From NCBI GenBank assembly GCA_013215945.1, contig JABSOM010000007.1, forward strand, positions 62,001 to 126,000: 64,000 nucleotides of DNA, written 5' to 3'. The number at the start of each line of letters is the position of its first letter. Position 1 is the stretch's first letter. This stretch comes from Campylobacteraceae bacterium. GTDB taxonomy: Bacteria; Campylobacterota; Campylobacteria; Campylobacterales; Arcobacteraceae. The position numbers and the translations under genes are program-made. Below, piece by piece: positions 46,316 to 61,169 of the stretch. The notes under the pieces are model-generated. The model saw only the letters and a list, made by a program, of their open reading frames with translations, had not been told where the DNA came from and did not search any database.

Positions 46316-46428
46316 AGAGGTGACGATTCAACCTCTAGTGGGATAAGTTGCAAAGATTAGTAAGTATACTGTCACCGAAATTTGAAAGTGTATCTAGTGT
46401 AAATAGTATTTATAAGAGGGGGAAATAG

Positions 46429-46719
46429 ATGGGACTGATCTTGTATATAGTATTTTCGTTATTATTTCTTATCTTAATGTATAAGCTAGCAAATAAATAC
46501 AAACATATCAATATTCTAAGTACTCTATTAATGGTTTTGTGTAGTGTTTCTCTTATTTATTATAAAGAAACCTTACTTCATTCTGAACTTTATAATATAT
46601 TTCAATTGTATAGATATGGATATACTATGAAAAGTGCAACAATTATTGATACTTTTACTTTTTTTACAATGTTATCAGTAATATTTATTATGGGATATAA
46701 ATTAGTTTTAAAAAAATAA
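46429..46719 (+). CDS. Small three-helix membrane protein, unknown
   Basis: This 96-residue protein has hydrophobic stretches at about 2-18, 28-46 and 72-92. An AGGGGG ribosome-binding site six bases before the ATG supports translation. No recognisable domain. It lies between the LysE gene and the RAYT-derived repeats, so it may be a lineage-specific or transferred gene. Confidence 0.55.
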   Translation: MGLILYIVFSLLFLILMYKLANKYKHINILSTLLMVLCSVSLIYYKETLLHSELYNIFQLYRYGYTMKSATIIDTFTFFTMLSVIFIMGYKLVLKK

Positions 46720-46739
46720 AAGGCAGACCTCAAATTAAA

Positions 46740-46847: not shown

Positions 46848-46925
46848 TAAAAATTACACCAAAATTACACCCCAGAGAAAATTACACCCCAAAATTACAC
46901 CCCAGAGAATGAATCTCCATTTTTC
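46848..46925. repeat. Left ATTACACCCC repeat array and RAYT-1 left-end copy
   Basis: Four AATTACACC(CC) units are followed by CAGAGAATGAATCTCCA, the same left end that flanks the intact RAYT at 57839-57870. It lies in direct orientation about 10.9 kb from that copy. Confidence 0.75.
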
Positions 46926-46994
46926 AATTAAATCAATTTTCATTAGATAATAAAATATATTATTTAAACTTTAAACTTTAAACTTGGGAATAAA

Positions 46995-47126
46995 ATTCTA
47001 ACAAGAATAAGAATAGATTTAGCGGGATATCAACATATAATTAATAGAGGTGTAAGCCGCTGTAATGTTTTTAATAATGATAAAGATATGTTTTTTGTTA
47101 TCAGTATTAGTACCACTAACTCGTAA
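46995..47126 (+). pseudogene. 5' remnant of a RAYT transposase
   Basis: The frame from 46995 to 47126 matches the first ~40 codons of the intact RAYT at 57935 (TRIRIDLAGY.HIINRG, CNVFNN, DKDMF). The upstream sequence also matches, back through the repeat. The start codon has changed (ATT in place of ATG), two codons are missing after CNVFNN, and similarity stops near 47098, leaving no catalytic HxH. It is therefore a dead fragment that carries the element's left end and sits just before the T2SS operon. Confidence 0.8.
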
Positions 47127-47266
47127 CAATAATTTAAATCTTAAATAAAGAAAATTTCTATTAAAATATAATACTAGACTTAGTTACCATTTTTATGCTA
47201 TTTTGTAAATAAAATTTGACATCATATTTATCTCTTTACGTATATTTAGATGCATTAGGAAAAAAT

Positions 47267-47641
47267 TTGAAAAACGCTTTCTCATTAATGGAATTAATTG
47301 TAGTTATCCTTATTTTGGGATTATTAGCCACTTTGGTACTGCCTAACTTAATTGGCAAAGGTGAAGAATCAAAAGCAAAAATTGTGTGTATTCAAATGAA
47401 GAGTATTTCTCAAACCTTAAAATTATACAAAATTGATTATAGTAGCTATCCAAGTACCCAAGAGGGGCTTAACATATTATCTTCAAAAAAGTATTTTGAT
47501 GAAGGTAAATTACCAAAAGATCCTTGGAAAAATGAATATATTTATACCCATAACGATGAAAAATTTGATTTGATTTCTTTTGGGCCAGATAAAAAAGAAA
47601 GTGTGAGCGATGACATTTATTACAGTAAATGCAGTAAATAA
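47267..47641 (+). CDS. gspG: T2SS major pseudopilin GspG
   Basis: This 124-residue protein is the major pseudopilin of type II secretion. A short leader KNA precedes FSLMELIVVILILGLLATLVLP, the pseudopilin helix with Glu5. The C-terminal part (YPSTQEGLNIL, LPKDPWKNEYIY, FDLISFGPDKKE) is the GspG-specific calcium-binding fold. The start is a TTG at 47267 with AGGA six bases upstream; an upstream TTG at 47216 lacks a ribosome-binding site. The residue before the cleavage site is Ala instead of Gly. It is the first gene of the operon. Confidence 0.92.
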   Translation: MKNAFSLMELIVVILILGLLATLVLPNLIGKGEESKAKIVCIQMKSISQTLKLYKIDYSSYPSTQEGLNILSSKKYFDEGKLPKDPWKNEYIYTHNDEKFDLISFGPDKKESVSDDIYYSKCSK

Positions 47642-48146
47642 AAAATCATCTTTTTCTTTAGTAGAATTAATACTTGTTATTGTTTTAATTTCACTTACTT
47701 ATACTTTATTTTTACCAAAAATGACTTTGTATTCGAATAAAAAAGAAAAACCAAGCTTGGTAAATATAAAAAGTTATCTTAAAAAACATTTTAAGTTTGA
47801 GGAAAATCTTACTTTTTCTTGTACGGATACTACTTGTTATATTTTTGTAGATAATAAGCGTATAGAGAATTTTGAAGTAAAAAATCTTTTCTCTTCAACT
47901 CCTGTTGTATATCAAAACAATGAAATCCTAGAGTTTTTAGATATTACAATAGATAATATTTCCTATTCTGTTGTTTTTGAATTGGCATTTGATAAGGACT
48001 ACAAAAGTAAAGACATTCTTCTTGAGGCCAATACCTTATTTTATTTTTATAATTCAATCCAAGACGAAGTACGTATATTTGAAACCTTAGGTTCATATGA
48101 AGATTATTACGAAAATTTAAAAATTGAGGTAAGTGATGCTTTTTAA
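47610..48146 (+). CDS. T2SS minor pseudopilin (GspH-like)
   Basis: This 178-residue protein has a pseudopilin N-terminus: NKKSSFSLVELILVIVLI after a ~13-residue leader, with Ser at the -1 position and Glu5 present. The rest is a beta-rich domain of unknown detail. It overlaps gspG by 32 bases and gspF by several bases. Position between G and F suggests GspH, but the globular domain is too divergent to confirm. Confidence 0.72.
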   Translation: MTFITVNAVNKKSSFSLVELILVIVLISLTYTLFLPKMTLYSNKKEKPSLVNIKSYLKKHFKFEENLTFSCTDTTCYIFVDNKRIENFEVKNLFSSTPVVYQNNEILEFLDITIDNISYSVVFELAFDKDYKSKDILLEANTLFYFYNSIQDEVRIFETLGSYEDYYENLKIEVSDAF

Positions 48147-49353
48147 ATATACTGGTATTGATTATGAAGGCAATAAAGTAAAAGCCAAAATTGAAGCTAT
48201 CTCCTTACATGGTGCCAAAGCTAAAATAAAAAATAAAAAGATTTTCATAAAAAGTATAGAAAAAGATGAGGCGATATTTAATACAAAACATTTTACCTTT
48301 AAAAAAAGAAAAATCAACAATACCTTACTTGCCACATTCAGTAGAGATTTAAGTATTTATTTAACAGCAGGAATTTCTTTGATAAATGCCCTTAAACTTC
48401 TTTCCCAATCTCATAAAAAAAATAAAAAACTCAATGCCTTTTTCACTTCTTTACATACATTTTTAGATGAAGGAAAAAATTTCTATACGGCATTAGAAGA
48501 ACAAAATATTTTTGAAGTCCCAGAATTTTATAAACAAAGTATTAAAATCTCCGAGAATGGGGGTTTGCTTCAAAGTGTTTTACTTGAATTAGCCACATTT
48601 CTAAAAGAACAAGATAGAATCAAAAAACAAATTTCACAAGCTATGATATATCCTATGTTTATATTAGGGATTTCTTTTTTAATGGTGGGATTCATGCTCT
48701 CTTTCATTGTTCCTAAACTTACAGCAGTTTTTGATCAGCTTGATCAAGAATTACCCGCTATTACTGTTTTCGTTATTAACTTAGGTGACTTTTTTGAAAA
48801 GAATTTTTTTTACTTAAGTTTTTTTCTTCTTATTTGCATTTTTACTTTTGTTGTTTGCCTTCATAAATATGAAGCTTTTAAATATGTTATAGATAAATAT
48901 CTTTTAAAAATACCTTTTTTCTCTGGTTTGTTAGAATTAGGCGAACTTAGCCGTTTTTCTTATATGAATTCTATTTTAATGCGCTCTGGTATCCCTTTTG
49001 TCCAAGCCGTACAATTAAGTTCAAATATTATAAAAAACTTACTTATTAAAAAGATATTTGAAGAAGGTGCCAGTAAAATAGTTGAGGGAGAAAAACTTTC
49101 AAAGGTTTTGGACAATAATAAACATTATAAGTTAGATGAAGCTTTTGTTCATGCTATTGCTATAGGAGAGGAAACAAGCACTTTAAGTGAAATACTAAAC
49201 AACCTAGCAACACTCTACAATGAATCCAATAAAGATAAAATCAATATCTTTTTATCTTTATTAGAGCCTATCTTCATGCTTCTTGTTGGTCTTATCATTG
49301 GTTTTATTGTAATTGCTATGCTTTTACCTATTTTTTCTATGAATATATCTTAA
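48136..49353 (+). CDS. gspF: T2SS inner-membrane platform protein GspF
   Basis: This ~405-residue polytopic platform protein has an N-terminal region (FKYTGIDYEGNKVKAKIEA) and two GspF domains. Three membrane segments lie near residues 170-195, 220-242 and 375-400. Signatures include TAGISLINALKLL and GEETSTLSEILNNLA. The ATG at 48136 is used, because AGGT lies just upstream. An in-frame GTG at 48133 is also possible. It holds the assembly ATPase GspE and the pseudopilus base. Confidence 0.93.
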   Translation: MLFKYTGIDYEGNKVKAKIEAISLHGAKAKIKNKKIFIKSIEKDEAIFNTKHFTFKKRKINNTLLATFSRDLSIYLTAGISLINALKLLSQSHKKNKKLNAFFTSLHTFLDEGKNFYTALEEQNIFEVPEFYKQSIKISENGGLLQSVLLELATFLKEQDRIKKQISQAMIYPMFILGISFLMVGFMLSFIVPKLTAVFDQLDQELPAITVFVINLGDFFEKNFFYLSFFLLICIFTFVVCLHKYEAFKYVIDKYLLKIPFFSGLLELGELSRFSYMNSILMRSGIPFVQAVQLSSNIIKNLLIKKIFEEGASKIVEGEKLSKVLDNNKHYKLDEAFVHAIAIGEETSTLSEILNNLATLYNESNKDKINIFLSLLEPIFMLLVGLIIGFIVIAMLLPIFSMNIS

Positions 49354-49354
49354 G

Positions 49355-50071
49355 ATGAAAAAATCTATCGTTTTACTGATTACTCTTCTTTTTATCTCTG
49401 CTATTTCACTTTTGGTTTTTAAGAACTTATCTTCAGGTGAAATATATTTAAGCAGTGTAAATAAAGAACATAACAATACACAAGTCATACTATTAATCAA
49501 AAATGCGCAAGAAGAATTGCTGTCTTATTTCTCAAAAGATGAGAGATATGATAGCTTTATATCAAAAAAAGAAGAACTAAGCCTTCCTTTTCATATTAAA
49601 GGCATTGATTTTAGTCTTACACTTTCAAAATATAATAAAGAGATTAATATTAATGACTTTAGTCTGAGTGACAAAAAAAAGAAAAAACTTTTTTTACAAA
49701 AAATAGAAATAATATTTAATGAAAATAATGGGGAGATAAATATTTTTAAAGACGTGGTAAATAGTTACTTCCTTCGCTATAAAATTACAAAAGAAAATCC
49801 AATTATTAACTCTAAGCAAGTTAATAATATAATGAGTGATTATCTTCAAAAAACTTATCGTAAAGAAGCAAATGAACTTATAGAGAAAATTGGATTTTTA
49901 CCCATCACTTTTAGAGAAAGTGAAAAGAAACAAAACAATAATATTCAATATATATTATGTACTTTAGACTTTAAAATAAATAAACAAGAATATCGTTCTC
50001 ATTTTATTTTGGATATTGAGAAAAAGACAAATAACACAGGAGTAATTGATTTTGCATTTACTTTCAAATAA
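49355..50071 (+). CDS. T2SS GspK-like minor component
   Basis: This 238-residue protein has an N-terminal helix MKKSIVLLITLLFISAISLL without the FTLIE motif, as is usual for GspK, which caps the pseudopilus. A large helical domain follows (INDFSLSD, INSKQVNNIM). It starts 2 bases after gspF and overlaps the next gene by 26 bases. The family call is based on position and the atypical N-terminus; sequence similarity is weak. Confidence 0.55.
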   Translation: MKKSIVLLITLLFISAISLLVFKNLSSGEIYLSSVNKEHNNTQVILLIKNAQEELLSYFSKDERYDSFISKKEELSLPFHIKGIDFSLTLSKYNKEININDFSLSDKKKKKLFLQKIEIIFNENNGEINIFKDVVNSYFLRYKITKENPIINSKQVNNIMSDYLQKTYRKEANELIEKIGFLPITFRESEKKQNNNIQYILCTLDFKINKQEYRSHFILDIEKKTNNTGVIDFAFTFK

Positions 50072-50981
50072 ACCAGTAAAGATATTTTTCTTAGAAAAAA
50101 ATACTACAAAAATTATTCCAAATGAAAAAATGTCTTTGATTTTATCTCCTGAGTTTTATTGGACCAGATTTTTTGAACTTCCTGTTAAATCAGTAGCTGC
50201 TGCTATAGAAATACTTCCTGATTTATTTGAAGAGTTTCTTCCCTTCAATAATTATTCTTATCAAGCTATAAAATTAGCAGATAGAAAATTTTTATGTTTT
50301 GCATATAATAATGATGAAATTTACAATATGATTAAAAAGTTAAAGTTTCCTATTTCACTGATAAAAAATATTTATTTTGCCCAGAATGAGTTTAAAGATT
50401 ATGAATCTTTTTCTTTAAATGAGACTAGTTATATGTACATAAATACGATTCTAGTAAAAGTACCTAAAAATGTAAACGTAAAAGAAATACCAGTACTAGA
50501 TAATAACTTACAAGGGTTAAAGCTATCAAAAACAAAAGTAGCATTAAAACTTTATAAAAGCCTTATAGATAAAAAATATCTTTATTTACTACTTACTTTT
50601 TTATTCTTCCTTTCCTCCCTTAATGTTTTAAAAATACTGATATATAAAACAGAAATTAACAAAAATAAAAATGAAATGCAAAATATAAAAAAACGTTATC
50701 ATTTACCTTCTACCATGCTTCAAACTAAGTCCATTATCAAGAATTATGATAAAAAGATAGAAGAAAATATCAAAATTCGGGCACAAATCAAGCATCTTGT
50801 TTTTTATAAAAAGATAGAAAAAAATATTATTTTCAAAAAAATAAAAATAGAAGACGATTCCCTAATTGTGTATGTTAATACTACAAATTCAAATAAATTT
50901 AAAAAATATATTGAAAAAAAATACTCTATTAAAAAAGCCTATTTTTTTAAAAATACCTTAAGAATTGAGTTGTTTATATGA
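50046..50981 (+). CDS. T2SS GspL-like inner-membrane protein
   Basis: This 311-residue protein has a cytoplasmic actin-like N-terminal half (about 1-170), a single membrane helix (about 180-198) and a short periplasmic region, the GspL layout. GspL anchors the GspE ATPase at the membrane. Starts are TTG: 50046 lies only 3 bases from AGGAG, while TTG at 50052 has a better 9-base spacing. It overlaps gspK-like and gspM-like genes on each side. Confidence 0.65.
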   Translation: MILHLLSNKPVKIFFLEKNTTKIIPNEKMSLILSPEFYWTRFFELPVKSVAAAIEILPDLFEEFLPFNNYSYQAIKLADRKFLCFAYNNDEIYNMIKKLKFPISLIKNIYFAQNEFKDYESFSLNETSYMYINTILVKVPKNVNVKEIPVLDNNLQGLKLSKTKVALKLYKSLIDKKYLYLLLTFLFFLSSLNVLKILIYKTEINKNKNEMQNIKKRYHLPSTMLQTKSIIKNYDKKIEENIKIRAQIKHLVFYKKIEKNIIFKKIKIEDDSLIVYVNTTNSNKFKKYIEKKYSIKKAYFFKNTLRIELFI

Positions 50982-51367
50982 ATAAGATAAATCCTTTGTA
51001 TATTTTACTTTTATTTGTTCTTCTTGCTTTTGTGAGTTTTTTCATTCTCGATCTTAAAAAAGAAGAAAATAAAAAATCGTTTGAATCTTTAAATATTTTT
51101 TTAAATACAGCTACACAATATGCCCATATTAAAAAGGATTGGTTAAACAAAAATAAAATAAAAAGAGATATTAATATAATACTTCGAAATTTTAGATCAG
51201 AACAGCTTGTAAAAGTAGAGTTACCAGCTTCCATTAAAATAAAAATGGAAACTAAGAATGAGAAAAAACTTGCTGCTTTTTTAAATAAACTACTTAATTC
51301 AAACTTTATATTTATAAAGCTTGAAATCACACAAAATTTAGTCTTAGCAGAGATAAGGTTGAAATAA
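50978..51367 (+). CDS. T2SS GspM-like protein
   Basis: This 129-residue protein has a short cytoplasmic start, one membrane helix (about 6-26) and a periplasmic alpha/beta domain, fitting GspM, the GspL partner. The ATG overlaps the gspL-like stop by 4 bases and its stop overlaps the next ATG (ATAATG). Identification rests on topology and gene order. Confidence 0.6.
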   Translation: MNKINPLYILLLFVLLAFVSFFILDLKKEENKKSFESLNIFLNTATQYAHIKKDWLNKNKIKRDINIILRNFRSEQLVKVELPASIKIKMETKNEKKLAAFLNKLLNSNFIFIKLEITQNLVLAEIRLK

Positions 51368-51894
51368 TGAAAAAACTTTTTAAACTCTTTTCTTATATCT
51401 TCTTTTTTCTTTTAATAATTCTTCTTACTTTACCTAAAGAAAACGTATATTATTTTTTTGAAAAAGAGTTAAAAAAATACAATATTGTATTCTCCAATGA
51501 AAAAATAAAAGAATCCTTTTTCAGCTTGGAACTCTCTTCTATAGATATAAATTTTAATAAATCATCTTTTTCATCTGTAGATGAAATTGATTTTACTTTT
51601 TATGTTTTCTATAATACACTTGAAATTAATACTATTAATATAAAGAAAGGTTTTATTGATTCCTATCCTTCTAAAATTGAGAAAGTGTATCTTTCTTATT
51701 CTATTTTTTCGCCTTCTTTCCTCAGCTTAAAAGCCCATGGGAACTTTGGTAAAGTAGAAGGCACTTTTTCTTTTCTTTCTAAGCGTTTGAAATTAAAACT
51801 TGATCAAAGCACTTTGATGGATATAAAATATAAGAATATTTTACAAGAAATGAAAAAAGAAAAAAAAGGTTATTCGTATGAATATCAATTATAA
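51367..51894 (+). CDS. T2SS GspN-like protein
   Basis: This 175-residue protein has an N-terminal membrane anchor (about 8-25) and a beta-rich periplasmic part (for example SPSFLSLKAHGNFGKVEGTF). GspN has this general layout and usually lies near gspC/gspM, as here. The similarity is weak, so the name is tentative. It overlaps gspM-like by one base and gspC by 17 bases. Confidence 0.5.
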   Translation: MKKLFKLFSYIFFFLLIILLTLPKENVYYFFEKELKKYNIVFSNEKIKESFFSLELSSIDINFNKSSFSSVDEIDFTFYVFYNTLEINTINIKKGFIDSYPSKIEKVYLSYSIFSPSFLSLKAHGNFGKVEGTFSFLSKRLKLKLDQSTLMDIKYKNILQEMKKEKKGYSYEYQL

Positions 51895-52675
51895 ACTTAA
51901 ACTTCTTTTGCCTTATTTATATATTTTTTTATTCGCTTATGGAGTTAATGCTGTTTTGTTTGTGTATCTTCCTAAAAATCCAATACAAAATAAAATAGAA
52001 TCAAAGAATCGAATAAACTACAGCACATATAATACTTTTTTTAATAAAGCCCCTCTGCTAAAAGAAGAAGAGAGTATAAAAAAAGAGTATTTTACAGTGG
52101 ATAAAATACGTGTAAAAGCAATTTATGCTCAAAAAAATAATGAAGGGTTAGCAATCCTTGAAGATAAGAATACAAAGAAGTCCTCTATAATAACTGTAGG
52201 ACAGGATTTTAAGACCTATACTCTAAAAAAACTCTTTAATACATATATTGTTCTAGAAAAAGATGAAAAAGAATATAAAGTTGTTTTGATAAAGTTATCT
52301 TCTAATGTAGAATATTCAATTAACAAAGAAAAAAAAGAAGAACTTAAAGTAAGTCAAACAGGGATTACCATATCACGGGTATATTTAAATACGTATATGA
52401 ATAATCTTTCAAAAATATGGAACAATATAAGCCTTAAAGAAATAAAAATAAAAAACAAAACAAAAGGTTTCCAAATTATAAATATCACACAAAACTCTGT
52501 GTTTGATAAATTGGGTTTAAAAAAAGGGGACGTGATTAAAAGAGTTAATAAAAAAAATATAGACTCTTCTGCATATGCGTTCGAATTGTATAAAAATATC
52601 AATGAAATGGAACATTTTTCAGTAGAAGTATTACGAAACAATAAAATGGTGGAGTTAAATTATGAAATTAATTAA
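51878..52675 (+). CDS. gspC: T2SS clamp protein GspC with PDZ domain
   Basis: This 265-residue bitopic protein has a membrane helix at about 9-29. A periplasmic homology region with Val-Ile strands follows (ILEDKNTKKSSIITVGQDF). The C-terminal PDZ domain (about 195-265) has GLKKGDVIKRVNKK as the carboxylate-binding loop. GspC links the inner-membrane platform to the secretin. It overlaps gspN-like and gspD genes. Confidence 0.82.
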   Translation: MNINYKLKLLLPYLYIFLFAYGVNAVLFVYLPKNPIQNKIESKNRINYSTYNTFFNKAPLLKEEESIKKEYFTVDKIRVKAIYAQKNNEGLAILEDKNTKKSSIITVGQDFKTYTLKKLFNTYIVLEKDEKEYKVVLIKLSSNVEYSINKEKKEELKVSQTGITISRVYLNTYMNNLSKIWNNISLKEIKIKNKTKGFQIINITQNSVFDKLGLKKGDVIKRVNKKNIDSSAYAFELYKNINEMEHFSVEVLRNNKMVELNYEIN

Positions 52676-54614
52676 AGTTTTTATAGCAATAGTATTATTG
52701 AACATATGTGTTTTAGCTAAAGGTGATAACATTAATGTTAATTTTAAAGATTTAGAGATAAAAGACCTAATTAAAATCACCTCTAAAATAATAAACAAGA
52801 ACATTCTTCTTACCTCCCCAATAAAAGGAAAAGTAGACTTTATTTCTAATACTTCGGTGAAAAAAGATGAAATTATTAATATATTGATTTATGTTTTGCA
52901 AGCAAAAGGTTTTACTATTGTAGAAAATGGTGATATTTTAAGAATTGTTAGAATTAATGATACGGCTAAATACAACACTCCTATTATTAATTCAACATCT
53001 AAAGAGTATTTTCAAATGGTAACTAAGGTTTTTAGGGTTTCATATTCTAATGTTGATTATGTGGCTTCAAAAGTACGCCATCTTATTTCAAAATCTGCAA
53101 AATTAGTAACAGATAAAGAATCTAATTCTATTGTAATCACTGATTTTTCTTCTAATATTAAAACCATACAAAAGGTAGTTAATTTAATAACCTTGGGAAA
53201 TGCAAAAGTTATTGAAATAGTGAAGCTTAAAAACATAGATGCAAAACTTGCCTCAACTAATTTAAAGCATGTAGCCAAATCAATATATAATGAAAAAATA
53301 CTTAAAGAGAAAGTATCCATTATTGTGAATAAAAACAATAATTCAATTACTTTAGTTGGAAAAAAACAAAATGTATTTTTTTTAAAAAAACAGCTTTTAT
53401 CCAATGACAGTAGCGGATCACTTATAAAAAGAGTAGTAGAAGTAATTTCTTTAAAAAATGTAGAAGCTAAAAATGTTATCAAGATAATTGATGCCATTAT
53501 AGGAAAGAAAAAATACCTAGACCCTAATATGAAACCTCTAAGCTCGATTGACGAAGAATCAAATTCTATTATTTTAGCTGGGCCTTTAGACGAAATAGAG
53601 TTTATTAAAGAATTGATTTCTAAACTTGACAAAGATAAATTGCAAGTATATGTACAAGCTAGAATTATTGAAGTGAACGAAAGTCTTGTTTCTGAAGTAG
53701 GGGCAAAATATGGAATTGCGGGAGGACGTGGAAATTCAAATGGAATTTTTACTTTTTCATCAGCACTTAATGGAGGGAAAGCTTTGGCTTTTGATACTTC
53801 AAGTATCGGACTTGTTTTGCCTAATATAAGCTCTGGACTTGCACTAGGGGCCAGTATTAATTTACTAAAAGAAAACTATGCGCTGGATATTGTTTCAGAA
53901 CCCTCTATTTTATGTATAAATAATAAAGAATGTTCTATTTATGTAGGGGAAACTATTTCTATTAAAACAGGCTCTAGTACAACGGATGGAGGTGTTACCA
54001 ATGATTCTTTTAAAAGAGAAGATATAGGACTTACCTTAAAAGTAAAACCTCGTATTTCGAATGATAATAAAGTGACGCTCTCAATAGAAACAATTTTAGA
54101 AGGGGTAAAACAAACGGTTTCTGTTAGTGGAAACCCTGATACCTCTAAAAAAGAAGTCAAAACAACAGCTATTGTAAACAATGGAGAATCCGTTATTATT
54201 GGGGGGCTTATTGAGAATAAAATGGAAGAAACCAATACTAAAGTACCTTTTTTAGGGGATCTTCCTCTTATTGGAGCTTTATTTAGGAATAAAAGTGAAA
54301 GTAATGTTCAAAAGAACCTTGTAATTGTCATTACTCCTTATATTATTCCTAAATCTAGGGATTTATCTTATGTAAGAAATCAGCTTGCACAATTAAAAGC
54401 ATTGGAATCAAAATATACCAAAGATATGGAACTAAGGCTCTTAGAAAACAAATTAAAAAATGATAAAAATGATAAAAAACGAGAAAAAAAACTTAAAAAA
54501 GTTAAAATTGCCTTAGCTAATCAAGTAGTATCTCAAAATAAAAAGAAGAAAATATCGAATACCTTTATGAAAGAAAGACAAGAAAAGATTAACAGGTTAA
54601 TGGGTCATGATTAA
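52662..54614 (+). CDS. gspD: T2SS secretin GspD
   Basis: This 650-residue outer-membrane secretin has a signal peptide (about 1-19), N0-N3 domains and a secretin core with VQARIIEVNE, the TTAIVNNGESVIIGGLIE gate region and TKVPFLGDLPLIGALF near the C-terminus. After the core there is a ~90-residue Lys-rich tail, which resembles an S-domain in position only and is not a typical pilotin-binding segment. It overlaps gspC and gspE. Confidence 0.95.
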   Translation: MKLIKVFIAIVLLNICVLAKGDNINVNFKDLEIKDLIKITSKIINKNILLTSPIKGKVDFISNTSVKKDEIINILIYVLQAKGFTIVENGDILRIVRINDTAKYNTPIINSTSKEYFQMVTKVFRVSYSNVDYVASKVRHLISKSAKLVTDKESNSIVITDFSSNIKTIQKVVNLITLGNAKVIEIVKLKNIDAKLASTNLKHVAKSIYNEKILKEKVSIIVNKNNNSITLVGKKQNVFFLKKQLLSNDSSGSLIKRVVEVISLKNVEAKNVIKIIDAIIGKKKYLDPNMKPLSSIDEESNSIILAGPLDEIEFIKELISKLDKDKLQVYVQARIIEVNESLVSEVGAKYGIAGGRGNSNGIFTFSSALNGGKALAFDTSSIGLVLPNISSGLALGASINLLKENYALDIVSEPSILCINNKECSIYVGETISIKTGSSTTDGGVTNDSFKREDIGLTLKVKPRISNDNKVTLSIETILEGVKQTVSVSGNPDTSKKEVKTTAIVNNGESVIIGGLIENKMEETNTKVPFLGDLPLIGALFRNKSESNVQKNLVIVITPYIIPKSRDLSYVRNQLAQLKALESKYTKDMELRLLENKLKNDKNDKKREKKLKKVKIALANQVVSQNKKKKISNTFMKERQEKINRLMGHD

Positions 54615-56106
54615 AGAAGAACTGCATGATTTAAACCTCACGCCTCATATCCTTGAAGGGTACGAATTGGCCTTAAAAAACTTTGTATTGTTTAGTGAAT
54701 ATGAAAATAATACTATTATTGCTGTAAGCTCTTTACATTTAGAAATTGCTTTTGATTATCTTTCAAAATATGAATATTCTTACGAAGTGAAATTTTTAGA
54801 TGAAATATCTTATGAAAAACTTTTTTCAAAATTTGTTGATTTTCGAGCGGATAAACAAATGTCCAAGATTCAAGAAGAACAAGAAAACGCTCAAATGCAA
54901 GAGGATGATTTTACATTAGATGAATTTTTAAAAGTGGGCTCTGATATTTTAAGCTCAGAAGAATCAGCTCCCATAATCAAGTTCGTTAATGCACTGTTTT
55001 ATCAAGCCATTAAAAAAAATGCTTCAGATATTCATATTGAAATGCATGAATATAAAGGTGAAGTAAGGTATCGAATGGATGGGGTTCTCTCAAAACATAT
55101 TGAGTTGGATAAAAATATCATGGCTTTAGTAATATCAAGAATAAAAGTAATTTCAAACCTTGATATTTCTGAAAAAAGAATTCCACAAGATGGACGTACA
55201 CAAATTAAAATATCTAAGAAAACCTTGGATATTAGGGTTTCCATTTTACCTACTTTTTATGGGGAAAGAGTGGTTATGAGAATACTTATGCAAAGTGAAG
55301 ATATTTTATCTTTAGAAGGTTTGGGCTTTTCTTCACAAGTAAGAGAAGGTCTGGATAAAGTTTTATATAATTCTTATGGCATGATATTAGTAACTGGTCC
55401 AACAGGAAGTGGAAAATCAACCACTTTGCATTCTTTATTGCATAAAATTAAAAGTGAAGAACAAAATATTATAACCATAGAAGATCCAGTAGAATACAAA
55501 TCCAATAATATATCTCAAATTCAAGTCAATGCAAAAGTTGGGCTTACTTTTGCAAGTGGCTTACGCTCCATTCTAAGACAAGATCCTGATATTATTATGT
55601 TAGGGGAGATTAGAGATGAAGAAACGGCTTCTATATCTATTCAAGCAGCATTAACGGGTCATTTATTGTTTTCAACCTTACATACGAATAGAGCACCTGC
55701 TGCAATAACAAGATTAATTGATATGGGGGTTGAAAAATATCTTCTTTCTTCTTCTTTATTAGCTGTTCTTGCACAAAGGTTGGTACGAATATTGTGTGAA
55801 CAATGTAAAGAAGTAGATATTTTAAGTTCCCATCATGATACCTTCACCCTAGAAATAAATTCAAAAATTTATAAAGCAAAGGGATGTAAAATATGTAATT
55901 ACACTGGATATAAAGGAAGAGTTGCTATTGGGGAATTGTTTATTATTACTGAAGAAATAAAAGAGTGCTTAAAACAGGATGTAGATGATTCTACTTTAAT
56001 GAAAATTGCTATTGATAATGGAATGATAAGTTTAAGTATTCAAATGATACATCTATTAGAAGAAGGTAAAACCTCTTTTAATGAAGCAATACGAATTGGT
56101 CTGTAA
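54607..56106 (+). CDS. gspE: T2SS assembly ATPase GspE
   Basis: This 499-residue secretion ATPase has an N1E-like start (about 1-90), Walker A GPTGSGKST (264-272), an Asp box (TIEDPVEY), Walker B (IIMLGEIRD) and a His box (GHLLFSTLHTN). The C-terminal zinc motif has two CxxC pairs (CEQC, CKIC), which is usual for GspE but absent from many pilus PilT proteins. It drives pseudopilus assembly with GspF and GspL. It overlaps gspD by 8 bases and is contiguous with gspI. Confidence 0.96.
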   Translation: MIKEELHDLNLTPHILEGYELALKNFVLFSEYENNTIIAVSSLHLEIAFDYLSKYEYSYEVKFLDEISYEKLFSKFVDFRADKQMSKIQEEQENAQMQEDDFTLDEFLKVGSDILSSEESAPIIKFVNALFYQAIKKNASDIHIEMHEYKGEVRYRMDGVLSKHIELDKNIMALVISRIKVISNLDISEKRIPQDGRTQIKISKKTLDIRVSILPTFYGERVVMRILMQSEDILSLEGLGFSSQVREGLDKVLYNSYGMILVTGPTGSGKSTTLHSLLHKIKSEEQNIITIEDPVEYKSNNISQIQVNAKVGLTFASGLRSILRQDPDIIMLGEIRDEETASISIQAALTGHLLFSTLHTNRAPAAITRLIDMGVEKYLLSSSLLAVLAQRLVRILCEQCKEVDILSSHHDTFTLEINSKIYKAKGCKICNYTGYKGRVAIGELFIITEEIKECLKQDVDDSTLMKIAIDNGMISLSIQMIHLLEEGKTSFNEAIRIGL

Positions 56107-56502
56107 ATGAAAAAAGCCTTTACTTTAATAGAAGTTATTATTTCAATTACTTTAATGTCTTTTGTAATTGTACTTTTATTAAATCTAAAAGAACAAAATC
56201 TCTATCTCGTAGATAAAGCACAAGACTCACAAGAAAAGAATGCTTATTTTTCATCCTTTGTTTTATCTTCATCTTTTCAGAATATAAATAATGAAAATAT
56301 ATATCTTTCTGATGTTTTAAGTTTTCAAAAATATGAACATAATAAAAACGTTAAAGACTTTAAAATAACAGTAAAAAACACAGCATTAAAAAGTAAAGTA
56401 TATGAAGTTTCTAGCTTGAATAATATTGAGTTTAAAGCATATGAAGGCCTATTCTCAAATAAAGACACACAAAAAAAATACTATTTTTTTAAGATAAACT
56501 AA
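56107..56502 (+). CDS. T2SS minor pseudopilin (GspI-like)
   Basis: This 131-residue protein has leader MKKA, then FTLIEVIISITLMSFVIVLL, a textbook pseudopilin helix with Glu5 and Ala at -1. The following ~100 residues are variable. Its position after gspE and before a similar gene fits GspI. It starts one base after the gspE stop. Confidence 0.72.
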   Translation: MKKAFTLIEVIISITLMSFVIVLLLNLKEQNLYLVDKAQDSQEKNAYFSSFVLSSSFQNINNENIYLSDVLSFQKYEHNKNVKDFKITVKNTALKSKVYEVSSLNNIEFKAYEGLFSNKDTQKKYYFFKIN

Positions 56503-57035
56503 TGAAATTAAAAGCTTTTACTTTAATAGAAGTGATTATTTCTATTACACTATTTTCTATTATCTTGCTTTTTATGTATAAAACTTTAGACATGACAAAC
56601 TTTTCTAATAAAATTTTTGAAGATAAAATAGAAAAAAATATGCTTCAAAACAGTGTAAAACAAATTATTGTAGAAGATATTTTAGAAGCATCAAGTGTTC
56701 TTAATATAGATAACACAGCTGAGTTTTCACTCTTAGAAATACAAAGTAATAATATGTACCATGATGTTTTTTACAAATATATATATTATCTTGTCTCAAG
56801 AGAAAAAAATTTACTCAGAATTGAAAGTTTAAATAAAATAAATTTTAAAAATTTTACACATGAAAGTTTAGAAAATGCTTATGTTGACCTTCTATTAAAA
56901 AACATCGAAATATTTTCTTTAGCAACATTTAGCAAAAACTACAGCAAAAATAATGCTGTCACTATCTTATTAAAACAAAAGAATACTAAAGAAATACTAA
57001 TCACTTCTCTTGTAATGGCTAAAAAAATTAAATAA
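56502..57035 (+). CDS. T2SS minor pseudopilin (GspJ-like)
   Basis: This 177-residue protein has leader MKLKA followed by FTLIEVIISITLFSIILLF. The N-terminal segment is almost identical to that of the upstream gene, pointing to duplication. Size and position suggest GspJ, which joins GspI and GspK at the pseudopilus tip. It is the last gene of the operon, and no prepilin peptidase (gspO) follows. Confidence 0.7.
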   Translation: MKLKAFTLIEVIISITLFSIILLFMYKTLDMTNFSNKIFEDKIEKNMLQNSVKQIIVEDILEASSVLNIDNTAEFSLLEIQSNNMYHDVFYKYIYYLVSREKNLLRIESLNKINFKNFTHESLENAYVDLLLKNIEIFSLATFSKNYSKNNAVTILLKQKNTKEILITSLVMAKKIK

Positions 57036-57340: not shown

Positions 57341-57502
57341 ATGAGTAATATATATTTACAATACTTTAGAAATATAATTGGTATTATCCTTGCCCTTATT
57401 GGTTTATATTTAGTTTTAATTGCAGAATTAGGAACATATGGAAGCTTATTCTTTCTTATTGGTATTTTTATGGTTAAAGGAATTAAAAAAGATGAAAAAT
57501 AA
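57341..57502 (+). CDS. Small two-helix membrane protein
   Basis: This 53-residue protein starts MSNIYLQYFRN, has two hydrophobic stretches (about 11-28 and 33-46) and ends with the basic KGIKKDEK. Its stop overlaps the start of the next small membrane gene (ATGAAAAATAA), implying coupling. No family recognised. It lies between RAYT-end copies, so it may be accessory cargo. Confidence 0.5.
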   Translation: MSNIYLQYFRNIIGIILALIGLYLVLIAELGTYGSLFFLIGIFMVKGIKKDEK

Positions 57503-57716
57503 AAAAGATAATGTAAAAGCAAAAGGAATTATTGGATTAATAGTTATGTCATGTACGATAATTTTTCCATCTAATTTTTATCCAGAATATCTAAATAACA
57601 ACTATTTACTTTTTTTAGTTCTGGCAATATTCTTAATTTCTGCTTACTACTCAGGTATGTGGATGTTTAAACTATCACAACCAAAAAATTATGATTTGTA
57701 TATGAAGCACAAATAA
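57492..57716 (+). CDS. Small membrane protein, unknown
   Basis: This 74-residue protein begins at ATG 57492 (MKNKKDNVKAKG), within the end of the previous gene, with AAAGGAA upstream. The open frame continues back to 57438, but that part is out of phase with the likely translation start. It has two hydrophobic segments (about 12-27 and 37-55) and a GMWMFKL tail. Unknown function; it probably forms a pair with the previous gene. Confidence 0.5.
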   Translation: MKNKKDNVKAKGIIGLIVMSCTIIFPSNFYPEYLNNNYLLFLVLAIFLISAYYSGMWMFKLSQPKNYDLYMKHK

Positions 57717-57737
57717 AGAAATGGGGAGATAAATTAA

Positions 57738-57870
57738 AAATTACACCCAAATTACACAAATTACACCCAAAATTACAAAAATTACACCCCAAAATTACAC
57801 CCCAAAAATTACACCCCAAAAATTACAATTACACCCCCAATTACACCCCAGAGAATGAATCTCCACTTTT
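57738..57870. repeat. ATTACACCCC tandem array plus RAYT-1 left end
   Basis: About ten irregular units of (A)AATTACACCC(CA), 8-13 bases each, run to 57850, then CAGAGAATGAATCTCCACTTTT. The last part is the exact complement of the right end after the RAYT (58690-58720). Confidence 0.85.
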
Positions 57871-57934
57871 CCATTAAATCAATTTTCATGATATAATAAA
57901 ATATATTATTTAAACTTTGAACTTGGGAATAAAA

Positions 57935-58717
57935 ATGCCAACAAGAATAAGAATAGATTTAGCAGGATATCATCATATAATTAATAGAGGGGTAAACCGC
58001 TGTAATGTTTTTAATAATGATAATGATAAAGATATGTTTTTACTGATTATAAATAAAACTTCAAAGACGCATGATATTGTACTACATGATTATGTTTTGA
58101 TGGATAATCACTATCACTTGTTAGTAGAAACAAAAAAAGAAAATCTTCCAATGTTTATGAGAATAGTAAATGCAAACTACGCAAAATATTACAATAAGAA
58201 ATATAATAGAAGTGGCCATTTATGGCAAGATAGATATAAATCAAGATATATAATACATGATGAATATTTCTATATAGTAATAAAATACATTGAAAATAAC
58301 CCCGTAGAAGCAAAAATGACATCAGAAATAGGCAAATATAAATTTACCTTGGCTTATAATATATTACATTCAAAAAAATATAAGGAGTGTTGTAAAGAAT
58401 CTATATTAATTAAAGGCTTTAATCTAAAGGAATTAATTGAATTTTTAGATATTTCCATTACAGAAGATGAATTAAAGATATTAAATGAGAAAGCAAAAGT
58501 AGATGTAAAAAGAATCGAAGAAAAAATTGTTATAAAAGAAATAAAAGAGTTATATATATATTTTGTAAATATTAATACAAAAGAAAAAAGAAATAAAGCT
58601 ATACTAGAAGCATATTATGATGGACATACACAAGTTAAAATATCAGAATATTTAGATGTATCTAAATCTCTTATTTCGAAGATACTAAAAAGTGGAGATT
58701 CATTCTCTGGGGTGTAA
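57935..58717 (+). CDS. REP-associated tyrosine transposase (RAYT-1)
   Basis: This 260-residue transposase of the IS200-like Y1 (TnpA_REP) class has start MPTRIRIDLAGYHHIINRG, metal-binding HUH-type motif MDNHYHLLVE and the C-terminal GHLWQDRYKS region after candidate Tyr residues (NANYAKYYNKKYN). A ~100-residue extension ends in a helix-turn-helix (KISEYLDVSKSLISKILK) that may read the repeats. The last residues (SGDSFSGV) and the stop codon are encoded by the right-end repeat. The start is the ATG at 57935; a TTG at 57917 is less family-like. Confidence 0.9.
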   Translation: MPTRIRIDLAGYHHIINRGVNRCNVFNNDNDKDMFLLIINKTSKTHDIVLHDYVLMDNHYHLLVETKKENLPMFMRIVNANYAKYYNKKYNRSGHLWQDRYKSRYIIHDEYFYIVIKYIENNPVEAKMTSEIGKYKFTLAYNILHSKKYKECCKESILIKGFNLKELIEFLDISITEDELKILNEKAKVDVKRIEEKIVIKEIKELYIYFVNINTKEKRNKAILEAYYDGHTQVKISEYLDVSKSLISKILKSGDSFSGV

Positions 58718-58752
58718 ATTTCATTCTCTGGGGTGTAAATTTGGTGTAAATT
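58690..58752. repeat. RAYT-1 right-end repeats
   Basis: One full copy AGTGGAGATTCATTCTCTGG plus GGTGTAAATTT is followed by a partial copy (CATTCTCTGGGGTGTAAATTT) and a third fragment GGTGTAAATTTT. The series abuts the Rhs fragment's first codon at 58753. Confidence 0.85.
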
Positions 58753-59460
58753 TTGAATGGTAGAGTATATGACGTAGATACCGCTAGATTTTTATCTGCT
58801 GATCCGAATATTTTTCATCCGTTTGTTACGCAGAATTTTAATCGTTATTCTTATGTTATGAATAATCCTTTGATGTATACGGATCCTAGTGGGTTTGATG
58901 CTCTTACTGAATCTGAGCACAATGATACATGGGGAGATTCTTCTAGTGATGGTGGAGGTTATGATCCTAGTGCTGGTGAGAAAGAAGCTAGGGATTATAA
59001 TAATAGTAGTGCTAGTAAAAAAGAAGAATATAAACGAAACAGAGCTAAAAATAAAAAAGATATTGAAATAGAATATGAACGTAGAGTAAGTCAAATGAAA
59101 GCTGAGGCTTCTATGCGAGAAGCTAGGGCTAGAGCTAGAGCTAATGAAGCTTCGAATAAAAATGTTGGACAGTTGAAGACTGGGAAAAGTTGGACAGATA
59201 AAAAAACAAAAAGAGCTAATGCAAATGCAAAAGCTATGGAAAATGTACCGGGGTGGAGTCATCCAAATGATATAGCAAAACAAAGAGCACGGAGTATGTT
59301 GGATACACCAGCAGCGAGATTTGGGCTAAATGCAATTGATAGAGGAATAGCAGGAGCAGGGCTTGGATCATTTCTTGGCCCTGGAGGGTCGTTTATTGGT
59401 GCAACAATAGGAATCTCAATTGGTTTACTTGAACAGGGAGTTTATGAATCAATTAAATGA
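58753..59460 (+). CDS. Orphan Rhs C-terminal tip (core end plus variable toxin-like domain)
   Basis: This 235-residue fragment opens abruptly with the last ~48 residues of an Rhs core ([38 protein letters not shown]). A hypervariable region follows: Ser/Gly-rich, then highly charged (about 85-150), then a glycine-zipper hydrophobic segment [18 protein letters not shown] near residue 210. There is no upstream Rhs repeat region, an in-frame stop lies in the adjoining repeat, and TTG without a ribosome-binding site is the only start. It is probably a displaced tip cassette; membrane-acting toxicity of the C-terminus is a guess. Confidence 0.75.
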
Positions 59461-59568
59461 ATAAAAGTTAAAATATAGATTATTTTTAGAAGAGATATAA
59501 AATATAAAGAAATTAAGTACATAAGGATTTAGAATATATAATAATGATTTTAATAAAAAGGACTTTGT

Positions 59569-60096
59569 GTGAATATGAAAGAACGAGAAAATAAATATAA
59601 ATTTTTTGCAATATTATTTTTATTATCAGCATTTATTAGTTTAATTAAATTTATAATAACAACAGATATTCCATTGTATAATTTTATTGAAATTATTATT
59701 CTAATAGTTATTTCAATCTACTTGTTTACTAAATCTAAAAAAATTGAAAAAAATAATCCAAAAGATAATGAAAAAAGAAATCTTATAGTATATAAATCGG
59801 ATAATATTATAATATGGGAAGAATTAAAATTTAATATAGAAGAATTTTATAAAAAGAATTACTTTTCTCGTATTGTAATTAACAAAGAAAATACTTGGAT
59901 GATTAAAAAAAATGAAAATGAAGAAAATAATACTTATATCGCTATGTTTCTTAGTAGTAATTGTATAAAAATAGAAGTTTTTAATGCAATTCCTATTGAT
60001 ATTAAAATAATAGATAACTTTAACTTAAGAGTTGAAAGAAATAAAGGAAATGAAGGAAATGAAGGAAATGAAGGAAATGGGGAGAGGCACCATTAA
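59569..60096 (+). CDS. Two-helix membrane protein, candidate immunity protein
   Basis: This 175-residue protein has two membrane helices (about 10-28 and 36-52) and a charged C-terminal domain (about 60-160). The start is GTG at 59569 with AAGGA six bases upstream; ATG at 59575 is possible. Position directly after an Rhs tip is where immunity genes sit, so that role is inferred. The C-terminus is odd: 9-base tandem repeats give GNEGNEGNEGN, and the last codons GERHH and the stop come from the end of the second RAYT element. Confidence 0.6.
   Translation: MNMKERENKYKFFAILFLLSAFISLIKFIITTDIPLYNFIEIIILIVISIYLFTKSKKIEKNNPKDNEKRNLIVYKSDNIIIWEELKFNIEEFYKKNYFSRIVINKENTWMIKKNENEENNTYIAMFLSSNCIKIEVFNAIPIDIKIIDNFNLRVERNKGNEGNEGNEGNGERHH
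60046..60081 (+). repeat. 9-base tandem repeat GGAAATGAA inside the immunity-like gene
   Basis: Three perfect units (60046-60072) and a partial fourth encode repeated GNE. The array runs straight into the GGGGAGAGGCACC end of RAYT-2. Confidence 0.85.
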
Positions 60097-60839
60097 ATCA
60101 ATAATCCCTATTTTTAGGTCTTCCAATAGGATTTAAAGTTGATTCTAAACCATATTTGTTACTTGTAAAAGATTGCCAAGTAGGATCACCTAAAGGTGAT
60201 TGTCTACTAATTGAATTCCTTATTGAATCTAGGTTTGTTTTGCTAGATTTCTCATTTATATAACTATGCCAATTTTTTGGGAGTACAATAGGTAAATTAT
60301 TTATGATTAAACTACTAAGCTCATTAACTCTATTATAAGCAGAACTATATTTATATAAAACACAATCTTTTACTATCTTAGCTCTTAAAGGATTAGCTTC
60401 AACATACTTAATTAAAGTAAGTAAATATACTTCTTCTTGAACAATAAAACTCTTATACCTTCCTTGCCATAAATGGCCAGATAATTTATATCTTCTGTTG
60501 TAATATCTTACATAAGATGAATTAATATGATGCATAGCAAATGATAAATTCTCGCCTACATTTGTGTATAAAACTAAATGATAATGATTCGACATTAAAC
60601 AATAAGCATAACACGATATATCATATTTTTCTTTTGCATCAAAAAGAAGATTCAAAAACTTATCATAATCATAAGAATCATGAAAGATTGCACTTCTTCT
60701 ATTTCCTCGATTGATAATATGATATATTTGTTCATCTGCTAAATTTCTTGCTATTCTAGGCATGGTTAATCCTTTAATAAAAGGTTACATATAATAACAC
60801 TAAATAATTAATATTTTTATTAAAAAGGTGACTGTCCAC
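60079..60839 (-). mobile_element. RAYT-2 element
   Basis: A transposase gene lies between GGGGAGAGGCACC (60079-60091) and GGTGACTGTCCAC (60827-60839). The two ends are imperfect inverted copies. The ends differ from those of RAYT-1, so this is a separate RAYT/REP family. Confidence 0.65.
60098..60763 (-). CDS. REP-associated tyrosine transposase (RAYT-2)
   Basis: This 221-residue Y1 transposase starts MPRIARNLADEQIYHIINRG, has HUH motif MSNHYHLVLY and the conserved YYNRRYKLSGHLWQGRYKS. VEANPLRAKIVKD follows. It lacks the helix-turn-helix extension of RAYT-1 and shares only family-level identity with it, so the two are not recent duplicates. The frame is intact. It closes the right side of the Rhs-tip cassette. 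Confidence 0.9.
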   Translation of the reverse strand: MPRIARNLADEQIYHIINRGNRRSAIFHDSYDYDKFLNLLFDAKEKYDISCYAYCLMSNHYHLVLYTNVGENLSFAMHHINSSYVRYYNRRYKLSGHLWQGRYKSFIVQEEVYLLTLIKYVEANPLRAKIVKDCVLYKYSSAYNRVNELSSLIINNLPIVLPKNWHSYINEKSSKTNLDSIRNSISRQSPLGDPTWQSFTSNKYGLESTLNPIGRPKNRDY

Positions 60840-60868
60840 ATTTTTTTGGTAGTAAAGAGCTCATACAA

Positions 60869-60930
60869 AGTTGCCTTTGCGCTTTTTTCTTTTTCTTAAT
60901 TGTAAGAAAAAGAAACAAAAAGAAGCAACT
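60869..60930. repeat. 62-base imperfect hairpin with A/T-rich arms
   Basis: Outer AGTTGC/GCAACT and inner TTTCTTTTTCTTA/TAAGAAAAAGAAA arms surround an ATTG loop. Almost the whole segment pairs. It sits between RAYT-2 and the ankyrin gene. Confidence 0.75.
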
Positions 60931-60938
60931 GACGAAAT

Positions 60939-61079
60939 GATAAAGCCCTTCGGGTTCCTAAATATTTTTATTGTTTAACTAGGTTCAAAAACTCCCTAAA
61001 ATGTGCTAATGAGCACATTTCTAACGCTCACACAGTTTTCACCTTTTTCCGTTAAAAAATAAAAATATTTAGCTTTATC
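60939..61079. repeat. 141-base large inverted repeat with central perfect hairpin
   Basis: GATAAAGC...AAATATTTTTATT...TTTAAC on the left pairs with GTTAAA..ATAAAAATATTT.GCTTTATC on the right. The centre has AAATGTGCT/AGCACATTT (60999-61020). It has a similar layout to the repeat at 2565-2686: long loose arms and a short perfect core. Confidence 0.7.
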
Positions 61080-61169
61080 AAAGTCAGGGAAAGAGCCGTG
61101 AGAATGTCATTTTTATTTGATTATTTTTTGTATTTTACTTTGTATAAAAAGAGGCGTAAGCTTCAAGGT

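What the first reader, a model, noticed from the sequence alone, without database searches (positions are those of the whole stretch)
57735..60841. Orphan Rhs tip and membrane immunity-like gene bracketed by two different RAYT transposases
The Rhs core fragment begins at the very base after the RAYT-1 right-end repeats, and the downstream two-helix protein ends inside the RAYT-2 terminus. So a toxin-tip plus immunity-like cassette is held exactly between two HUH-type transposases of separate families, with no Rhs body. Rhs-CT displacement is known. A RAYT-bounded tip cassette is not something I recognise and could be a route for shuffling Rhs tips.
Basis: partly seen in the sequence, partly recalled or inferred. 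Interest (0 to 1): 0.78.

Follow-up and report, generated by a model that had tools for sequence, protein, structure and literature searches.

The report
Toxin-tip relic bordered by RAYT transposases
A broken-off tail end of a bacterial toxin gene, with its probable protective partner gene, sits exactly against a REP-associated transposase element; the same kind of element borders toxin tips in another genus, so these elements may mark, or even make, the breaks by which such toxin cassettes get rearranged.

Summary
The anatomy is real. A full-length RAYT (RAYT-1, 57935-58717 +, REP1 repeats at both ends) abuts, at 58754, the 3' stub of an Rhs gene. A 175-aa two-TM protein follows, and a second RAYT (60098-60763 -) sits in its tail. 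No other part of an Rhs protein was found in the 98.7%-complete genome. DNA similarity to relatives' Rhs genes begins at or within 10 bp of this junction in six of seven genes.

RAYT-2 looks like a separate, later insertion in the tail of the immunity-like gene, which has a solitary 94%-identical paralog elsewhere (dN/dS 0.21, so selectively maintained). The RAYT-1 side is more interesting. In another genus (G042), internally deleted RAYT-1-family elements sit directly upstream of an Rhs-type Ntox33 tip plus DUF4279 gene. About two dozen copies punctuate islands of toxin, antitoxin and other accessory genes there, and duplicated segments mostly end at their borders.

Best reading: a displaced Rhs tip/immunity relic at a REP/RAYT-marked rearrangement hotspot. 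Active RAYT mobilisation of tips is possible but unproven. New variant of the known orphan Rhs-CT/immunity module.

The parts
46319..46346 (+). decayed REP1-like sequence at the left border of a ~14.8-kb block absent from sister genome G087
   Evidence: block absent in sister; alignment; REP1 score reached by 0.36% of background windows; sister junction 1.0%
46850..47095 (+). second, truncated copy of RAYT-1: left REP array plus about the first 35 codons
57262..57310 (+). REP1 copy plus partial repeats upstream of two small membrane ORFs
57341..57716 (+). two overlapping small ORFs with hydrophobic segments (53 and 92 aa), immunity-like by size only
   Evidence: (no family)
57735..57866 (-). 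RAYT-1 left end: inverted REP1 and tandem ACACCCC repeats
57935..58717 (+). RAYT-1 transposase, 260 aa, HYH and Y---NP motifs; last codons and stop lie inside the right REP
58692..58753 (+). RAYT-1 right end: REP1 and tandem copies; abuts the Rhs stub
58754..58896 (+). 3' end of the Rhs-associated core (NGRVYD...DPSGFD)
58753..59460 (+). Rhs 3' stub, 235 aa: core fragment, charged helical linker, glycine-rich C-terminus; unknown toxin tip
59569..60096 (+). 175-aa protein with two N-terminal hydrophobic segments, candidate immunity; solitary 94% DNA paralog at G000:C8:115908-116415
60098..60763 (-). RAYT-2 transposase, 221 aa, HYH and Y---NP motifs, different subfamily
60826..60840 (-). REP2-like end of RAYT-2 (GTGGACAGTCACC); related motif GGTGCCTCTCCCC at 60080-60092
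   Evidence: read by eye
60853..61097 (+). 245-bp dispersed repeat, 94% identical copy downstream of the solitary paralog

Best explanation
A relic of a displaced Rhs C-terminal module. An ancestor carried an Rhs protein of about 2,100-2,300 aa like those of related genera; here only the last 235 codons survive, together with the adjacent membrane protein that probably neutralised the tip. The break lies exactly at the outer end of a RAYT-1 element, in an accessory island rich in REP1 repeats, either because the Rhs body was deleted up to the element or because the 3' end was carried there by recombination between REP/RAYT copies. RAYT-2 later landed in the tail of the immunity-like gene. Shown: anatomy, junction, loss of the Rhs body, absence of the block from the sister, paralog under purifying selection, recurrence of the RAYT-1-type border in G042. 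Inferred: immunity function, toxicity, order of events, mechanism of the break.
For: Rhs core above cut-off only once in the genome, no body; homology to relatives starts at the REP end; relatives have full-length Rhs followed by small hydrophobic genes (94 aa in G035, 95 aa in G059); the ~14.8-kb block is missing from sister G087 and a decayed REP1 lies at that site in both; solitary immunity paralog with dN/dS 0.21, Fisher p=2e-4; RAYT-1-family element directly upstream of an Ntox33 tip in another genus, with tip and element duplicated together.
Against: The tip has no recognisable toxin domain and no homologue was found, and its single-sequence structure model is poor (mean pLDDT 58.8), so 'toxin tip' rests on its position after the Rhs core. 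No sister with the intact ancestral Rhs at this site was found, so the sequence of events is not observed.
Confidence: 0.68

Rival explanations
1. RAYT-1/REP1 elements actively mobilise tip-immunity modules: a stretch starting at a RAYT/REP end is copied or moved, by single-strand transposition or by recombination between elements, so that toxin tips and other small defence cassettes are shuffled in integron-like arrays.
For: In G042 about two dozen RAYT-derived MITEs punctuate islands of toxins, antitoxins, Ntox33 tip + DUF4279 and other genes, mostly in one orientation within a cluster. Of five duplicated non-IS segments, 8 of 10 ends fall within 6 bp of a MITE border in at least one copy (counted by hand). 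REP1 and Y1 transposases are over-represented near Rhs cores. A RAYT with matching REPs and full-length frame is present in both genomes.
Against: Homologous recombination between repeated MITEs gives the same end points without transposase. Islands tolerate both MITEs and orphan toxins, so association need not be cause. No circle, no excision footprint and no conserved target next to the tips was seen. The solitary immunity paralog in G000 has no RAYT beside it.
Confidence: 0.2
2. Chance neighbourhood: RAYT-1 and RAYT-2 inserted independently into a dying Rhs locus, and the body was lost for unrelated reasons.
For: RAYT-2 is a separate subfamily in the tail of a gene whose paralog has none. 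Orphan CdiA-CT genes, the parallel system, are in several instances disrupted by IS elements (PMC3150448).
Against: The sharp junction at the RAYT-1 right end, its recurrence in another genus, and the REP1 enrichment.
Confidence: 0.25
3. A working orphan toxin-immunity module, expressed by read-through from RAYT-1 and the TTG start at 58753, acting like a toxin-antitoxin pair.
For: The stub is open over 235 codons; GGTG lies 6 bases before TTG (read by eye); an orphan rhs gene next to a full-length one is reported in a toxin-antitoxin-like role in Salmonella (PMC7043789, title and start of abstract only).
Against: No ATG, weak ribosome-binding site, no evidence of selection on the tip (no second copy to compare); REP and terminator effects unknown.
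Confidence: 0.08

Closest known systems
Orphan cdiA-CT/cdiI and rhs-CT/rhsI modules (PMC3150448)
   Same: 3' fragment of a large toxin gene with a short piece of conserved core, followed by a probable immunity gene; tip unrelated to relatives' tips
   Different: No full-length parent gene anywhere in this genome; the left border is a RAYT/REP end rather than an upstream immunity gene; RAYT is not among the associations in the passages read
RAYT/REP systems, REPtrons and REPINs (PMC2817692, PMC3116915, PMC3733652, PMC6006769)
   Same: Single-tyrosine HUH transposase with HYH and Y---NP motifs, flanked by inverted repeats with a 5' GTGG foot that recur singly through the genome
   Different: Repeat hairpins are weak; in G042 the internally deleted RAYT is itself amplified and sits at borders of accessory genes, including toxin tips
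H-repeat insertion sequences linked to E. coli rhs (own knowledge; one search found only passing mentions)
   Same: Transposase genes linked to rhs loci
   Different: H-rpt encodes a transposase of another type, not a Y1 HUH enzyme (own knowledge)

Membership tests
RAYT (class 2 Y1 HUH) | Y1_Tnp domain over Pfam cut-off | tested here: met
   51.4 and 59.3 bits, cut-off 23
RAYT (class 2 Y1 HUH) | HUH and Y---NP signature (PMC6006769) | tested here: met
   RAYT-1 DNHYHLL and YIENNP; RAYT-2 SNHYHLV and YVEANP
RAYT (class 2 Y1 HUH) | NCBIfam REP_Tyr_transpos score over its cut-off | tested here: not met
   65.1 and 65.7 bits against cut-off 80; best family hit all the same. This is a scoring threshold, not a defining trait, so the RAYT label is kept with this reservation
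RAYT (class 2 Y1 HUH) | gene flanked by inverted REPs that also occur singly elsewhere | tested here: met
   REP1 at both ends of RAYT-1, 19 pattern matches in G000, 58 in G042
RAYT (class 2 Y1 HUH) | REP folds into a stable hairpin behind a GTAG/GTGG foot | tested here: inconclusive
   GTGG foot present; hairpin only 4 bp, -1.7 kcal/mol, not kept in the G042 version
Orphan Rhs-CT/immunity module | Rhs core end fused to a variable tip | tested here: met
   TIGR03696 positions 34-75, E=3.4e-11; tip differs from relatives' tips
Orphan Rhs-CT/immunity module | followed by a gene that neutralises the tip | not testable with these tools
   two-TM 175-aa gene downstream under purifying selection; neutralisation needs an experiment
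Orphan Rhs-CT/immunity module | tip is a toxin | tested here: inconclusive
   no Pfam/NCBIfam domain in the tip, no plasmid or phage relative; low-confidence model
T6SS Rhs effector | PAAR or other T6SS-type N-terminus, vgrG neighbour | not tested
   N-terminus lost here; two relatives scanned show FG-GAP and RHS repeats and no PAAR hit; vgrG not searched

The most novel reading that the evidence does not exclude
In this bacterial family, RAYT/REP elements act as the borders and the mobilising signals of a cassette system: stretches starting at a RAYT-1-type right end, carrying toxin tips with immunity genes, toxin-antitoxin pairs and other small accessory genes, are copied between chromosomal islands, a HUH-transposase counterpart of integron arrays and a route for exchanging Rhs tips.
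Probability: 0.17. Interest if true: 0.85.

Novelty: new variant of a known kind. Interest (0 to 1): 0.5.

Why it matters
How Rhs and CDI toxin tips move between loci is open; recombination through conserved core sequence is the model discussed in the paper read here (PMC3150448). A recurrent border made by a single-strand transposase element, in two genera, offers a concrete, testable second route. The G042 arrays suggest that RAYT-derived MITEs can structure whole islands of accessory genes, a role I did not find described in the papers searched.

Tried and rejected
(1) Single two-RAYT cassette: rejected, because RAYT-2 is of another subfamily, on the opposite strand, in the tail of a gene whose paralog lacks it. 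(2) RAYT-1 simply inserted into an Rhs gene still present on its left side: rejected, no Rhs sequence left of 57735 or elsewhere. (3) Integron: integrase-like fragments in G042 islands were read by eye only; I take them to belong to an IS91-like element next to a Y2 transposase; integron status not tested. (4) Tip homologues on plasmids or phages: none. (5) Immunity homologues outside the genome: only weak hits, best E 6e-6 and 22-43% identity, not used. (6) AlphaFold model of the tip: too poor for a fold search. (8) Literature: no paper found that deals with RAYT together with Rhs.

Full report
Check of the observation. The window is G000:C7:62001-126000 of a 3.24-Mb genome in 28 contigs, 98.67% complete. 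Two Y1 transposase genes bracket the region. They are class 2 RAYTs by motif (HYH, Y---NP; criteria from PMC6006769), 43% identical to each other over 145 aa. RAYT-1 carries inverted copies of a 26-bp repeat, REP1, at its ends; its stop codon is part of the right REP. Four bases (ATTT) separate the last GTGTAA of the tandem repeats from TGAATGG at 58754, where alignments to the Rhs genes of G067, G059 (two genes), G033 and G035 begin; for G069 the alignment starts at 58745, and for G040, whose gene is cut by a contig end, only at 58846. The encoded stub begins in the Rhs-associated core (TIGR03696 positions 34-75). It continues into a charged helical linker and a glycine-rich end without recognised domain.

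No Rhs body. A search of the genome with the 2,154-aa Rhs of G067 finds only this stub, and the core family gives only this match above its cut-off. Two relatives' proteins carry FG-GAP and RHS repeats with no PAAR hit; the G035 protein has a hydrophobic, signal-peptide-like N terminus, read by eye. I did not search for vgrG.

The island. In sister genome G087 the sequence is collinear at about 94% up to window 46319 and again from 61150. The ~14.8 kb between, with a type II secretion-like operon, small membrane genes, both RAYTs, the Rhs stub and the 175-aa gene, is absent. At the junction both genomes have a decayed REP1-like sequence (scores reached by 0.4% and 1.0% of background windows; five windows tested, no correction). 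A truncated second copy of RAYT-1 lies at 46850-47095, at the other end of the block. The region is therefore a REP-marked spot of gene gain or loss; whether G087 lost or G000 gained the block is not settled.

The immunity-like gene. A 94%-identical DNA copy (508 bp) lies alone at G000:C8:115908-116415, downstream of a ribonucleotide-reductase-like gene (product read by eye), without Rhs or RAYT. Over 155 codons dN/dS is 0.21 (Fisher p=2e-4): both copies, or at least one, were kept under purifying selection. The two copies share their downstream 245-bp repeat (94%). The tail of the window copy differs, with a 9-bp tandem repeat and the RAYT-2 end, so RAYT-2 is best read as a later insertion.

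Recurrence. In G042, another genus of the family, two copies of an internally deleted RAYT-1 element lie at L090 6697-6892 and 10986-11181. Each is followed within a few bases by a toxin-tip reading frame; for the second the frame matches Ntox33 (E=2.8e-22) and is followed by a DUF4279 gene. The first copy's tip is interrupted by an IS. An orphan 468-aa Rhs/YD fragment lies between them. Element and tip are duplicated together (92.6% over 500 bp). The intact G042 RAYT is 58% identical to RAYT-1 over its whole length. In the seven other G042 regions fetched for their REP clusters, such MITEs separate ParE-type toxins, DUF4238 genes, transporter fragments and IS remnants. Of five duplicated non-IS segments, 8 of 10 ends fall within 6 bp of a MITE border in at least one copy (counted by hand). 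These regions were chosen because they hold REP1, so they do not represent the genome.

Statistics. Within 3.5 kb of an Rhs core, REP1 clusters number 4 against 0.10 expected and Y1 transposase clusters 3 against 0.065. The discovery locus is included; without it the REP1 figure is 3 against about 0.07 (my arithmetic). The null places elements uniformly; restricting it to intergenic or island DNA would raise the expectation several-fold, so these figures overstate the surprise. REP1 positions for G042 were listed only in part. One of the three Y1 loci (G042) is an IS200-type element, not a RAYT, by length.

Mechanism. Two processes fit: deletion or recombination between repeated REP/RAYT copies, with the element as passive homology, or single-strand transposition of a stretch starting at the element. 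Nothing here separates them. The passive version is simpler and I prefer it.

Comparison. The closest known kind is the orphan CT/immunity module of CDI and Rhs systems (PMC3150448). This case meets the core-plus-tip test, lacks a parent gene, and has an unusual RAYT border. I found no paper joining RAYT and Rhs; the library holds open-licence papers only.

Noticed in passing
window 47216-57035: Type II secretion/pseudopilin-like operon that is absent from sister G087 along with the rest of the block; its last pseudopilin has no match in two of three congeners and a 48% partial match in the third.
   Followed up: partly
L129 (G042:C5:1-18000), also L130-L135: Arrays of ~196-bp RAYT-derived MITEs separating small accessory genes in one orientation; a 1.3-kb MITE-gene-MITE unit is duplicated at 98%.
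   Followed up: partly
L059 1588-3805 (G035): Downstream of a full-length Rhs and a 94-aa hydrophobic gene lie repeated GGGGTCAGACCCC motifs, a twofold-repeated ORF that looks RelE/ParE-like by eye, and a RAYT.
   Followed up: partly
window 60853-61097; L044 14417-14685; L088 10519-10763: Dispersed ~245-bp non-coding repeat, present in own and sister genome; a 70% inverted match follows the copy in L088.
   Followed up: no
L093 1960-3809 (G075): Two tandem short ORFs with Rhs-core-like starts and different tips, each followed by a small hydrophobic ORF.
   Followed up: no
window 46430-46720: Another small hydrophobic ORF between REP-like repeats at the left end of the block, reminiscent of an orphan immunity gene.
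   Followed up: no
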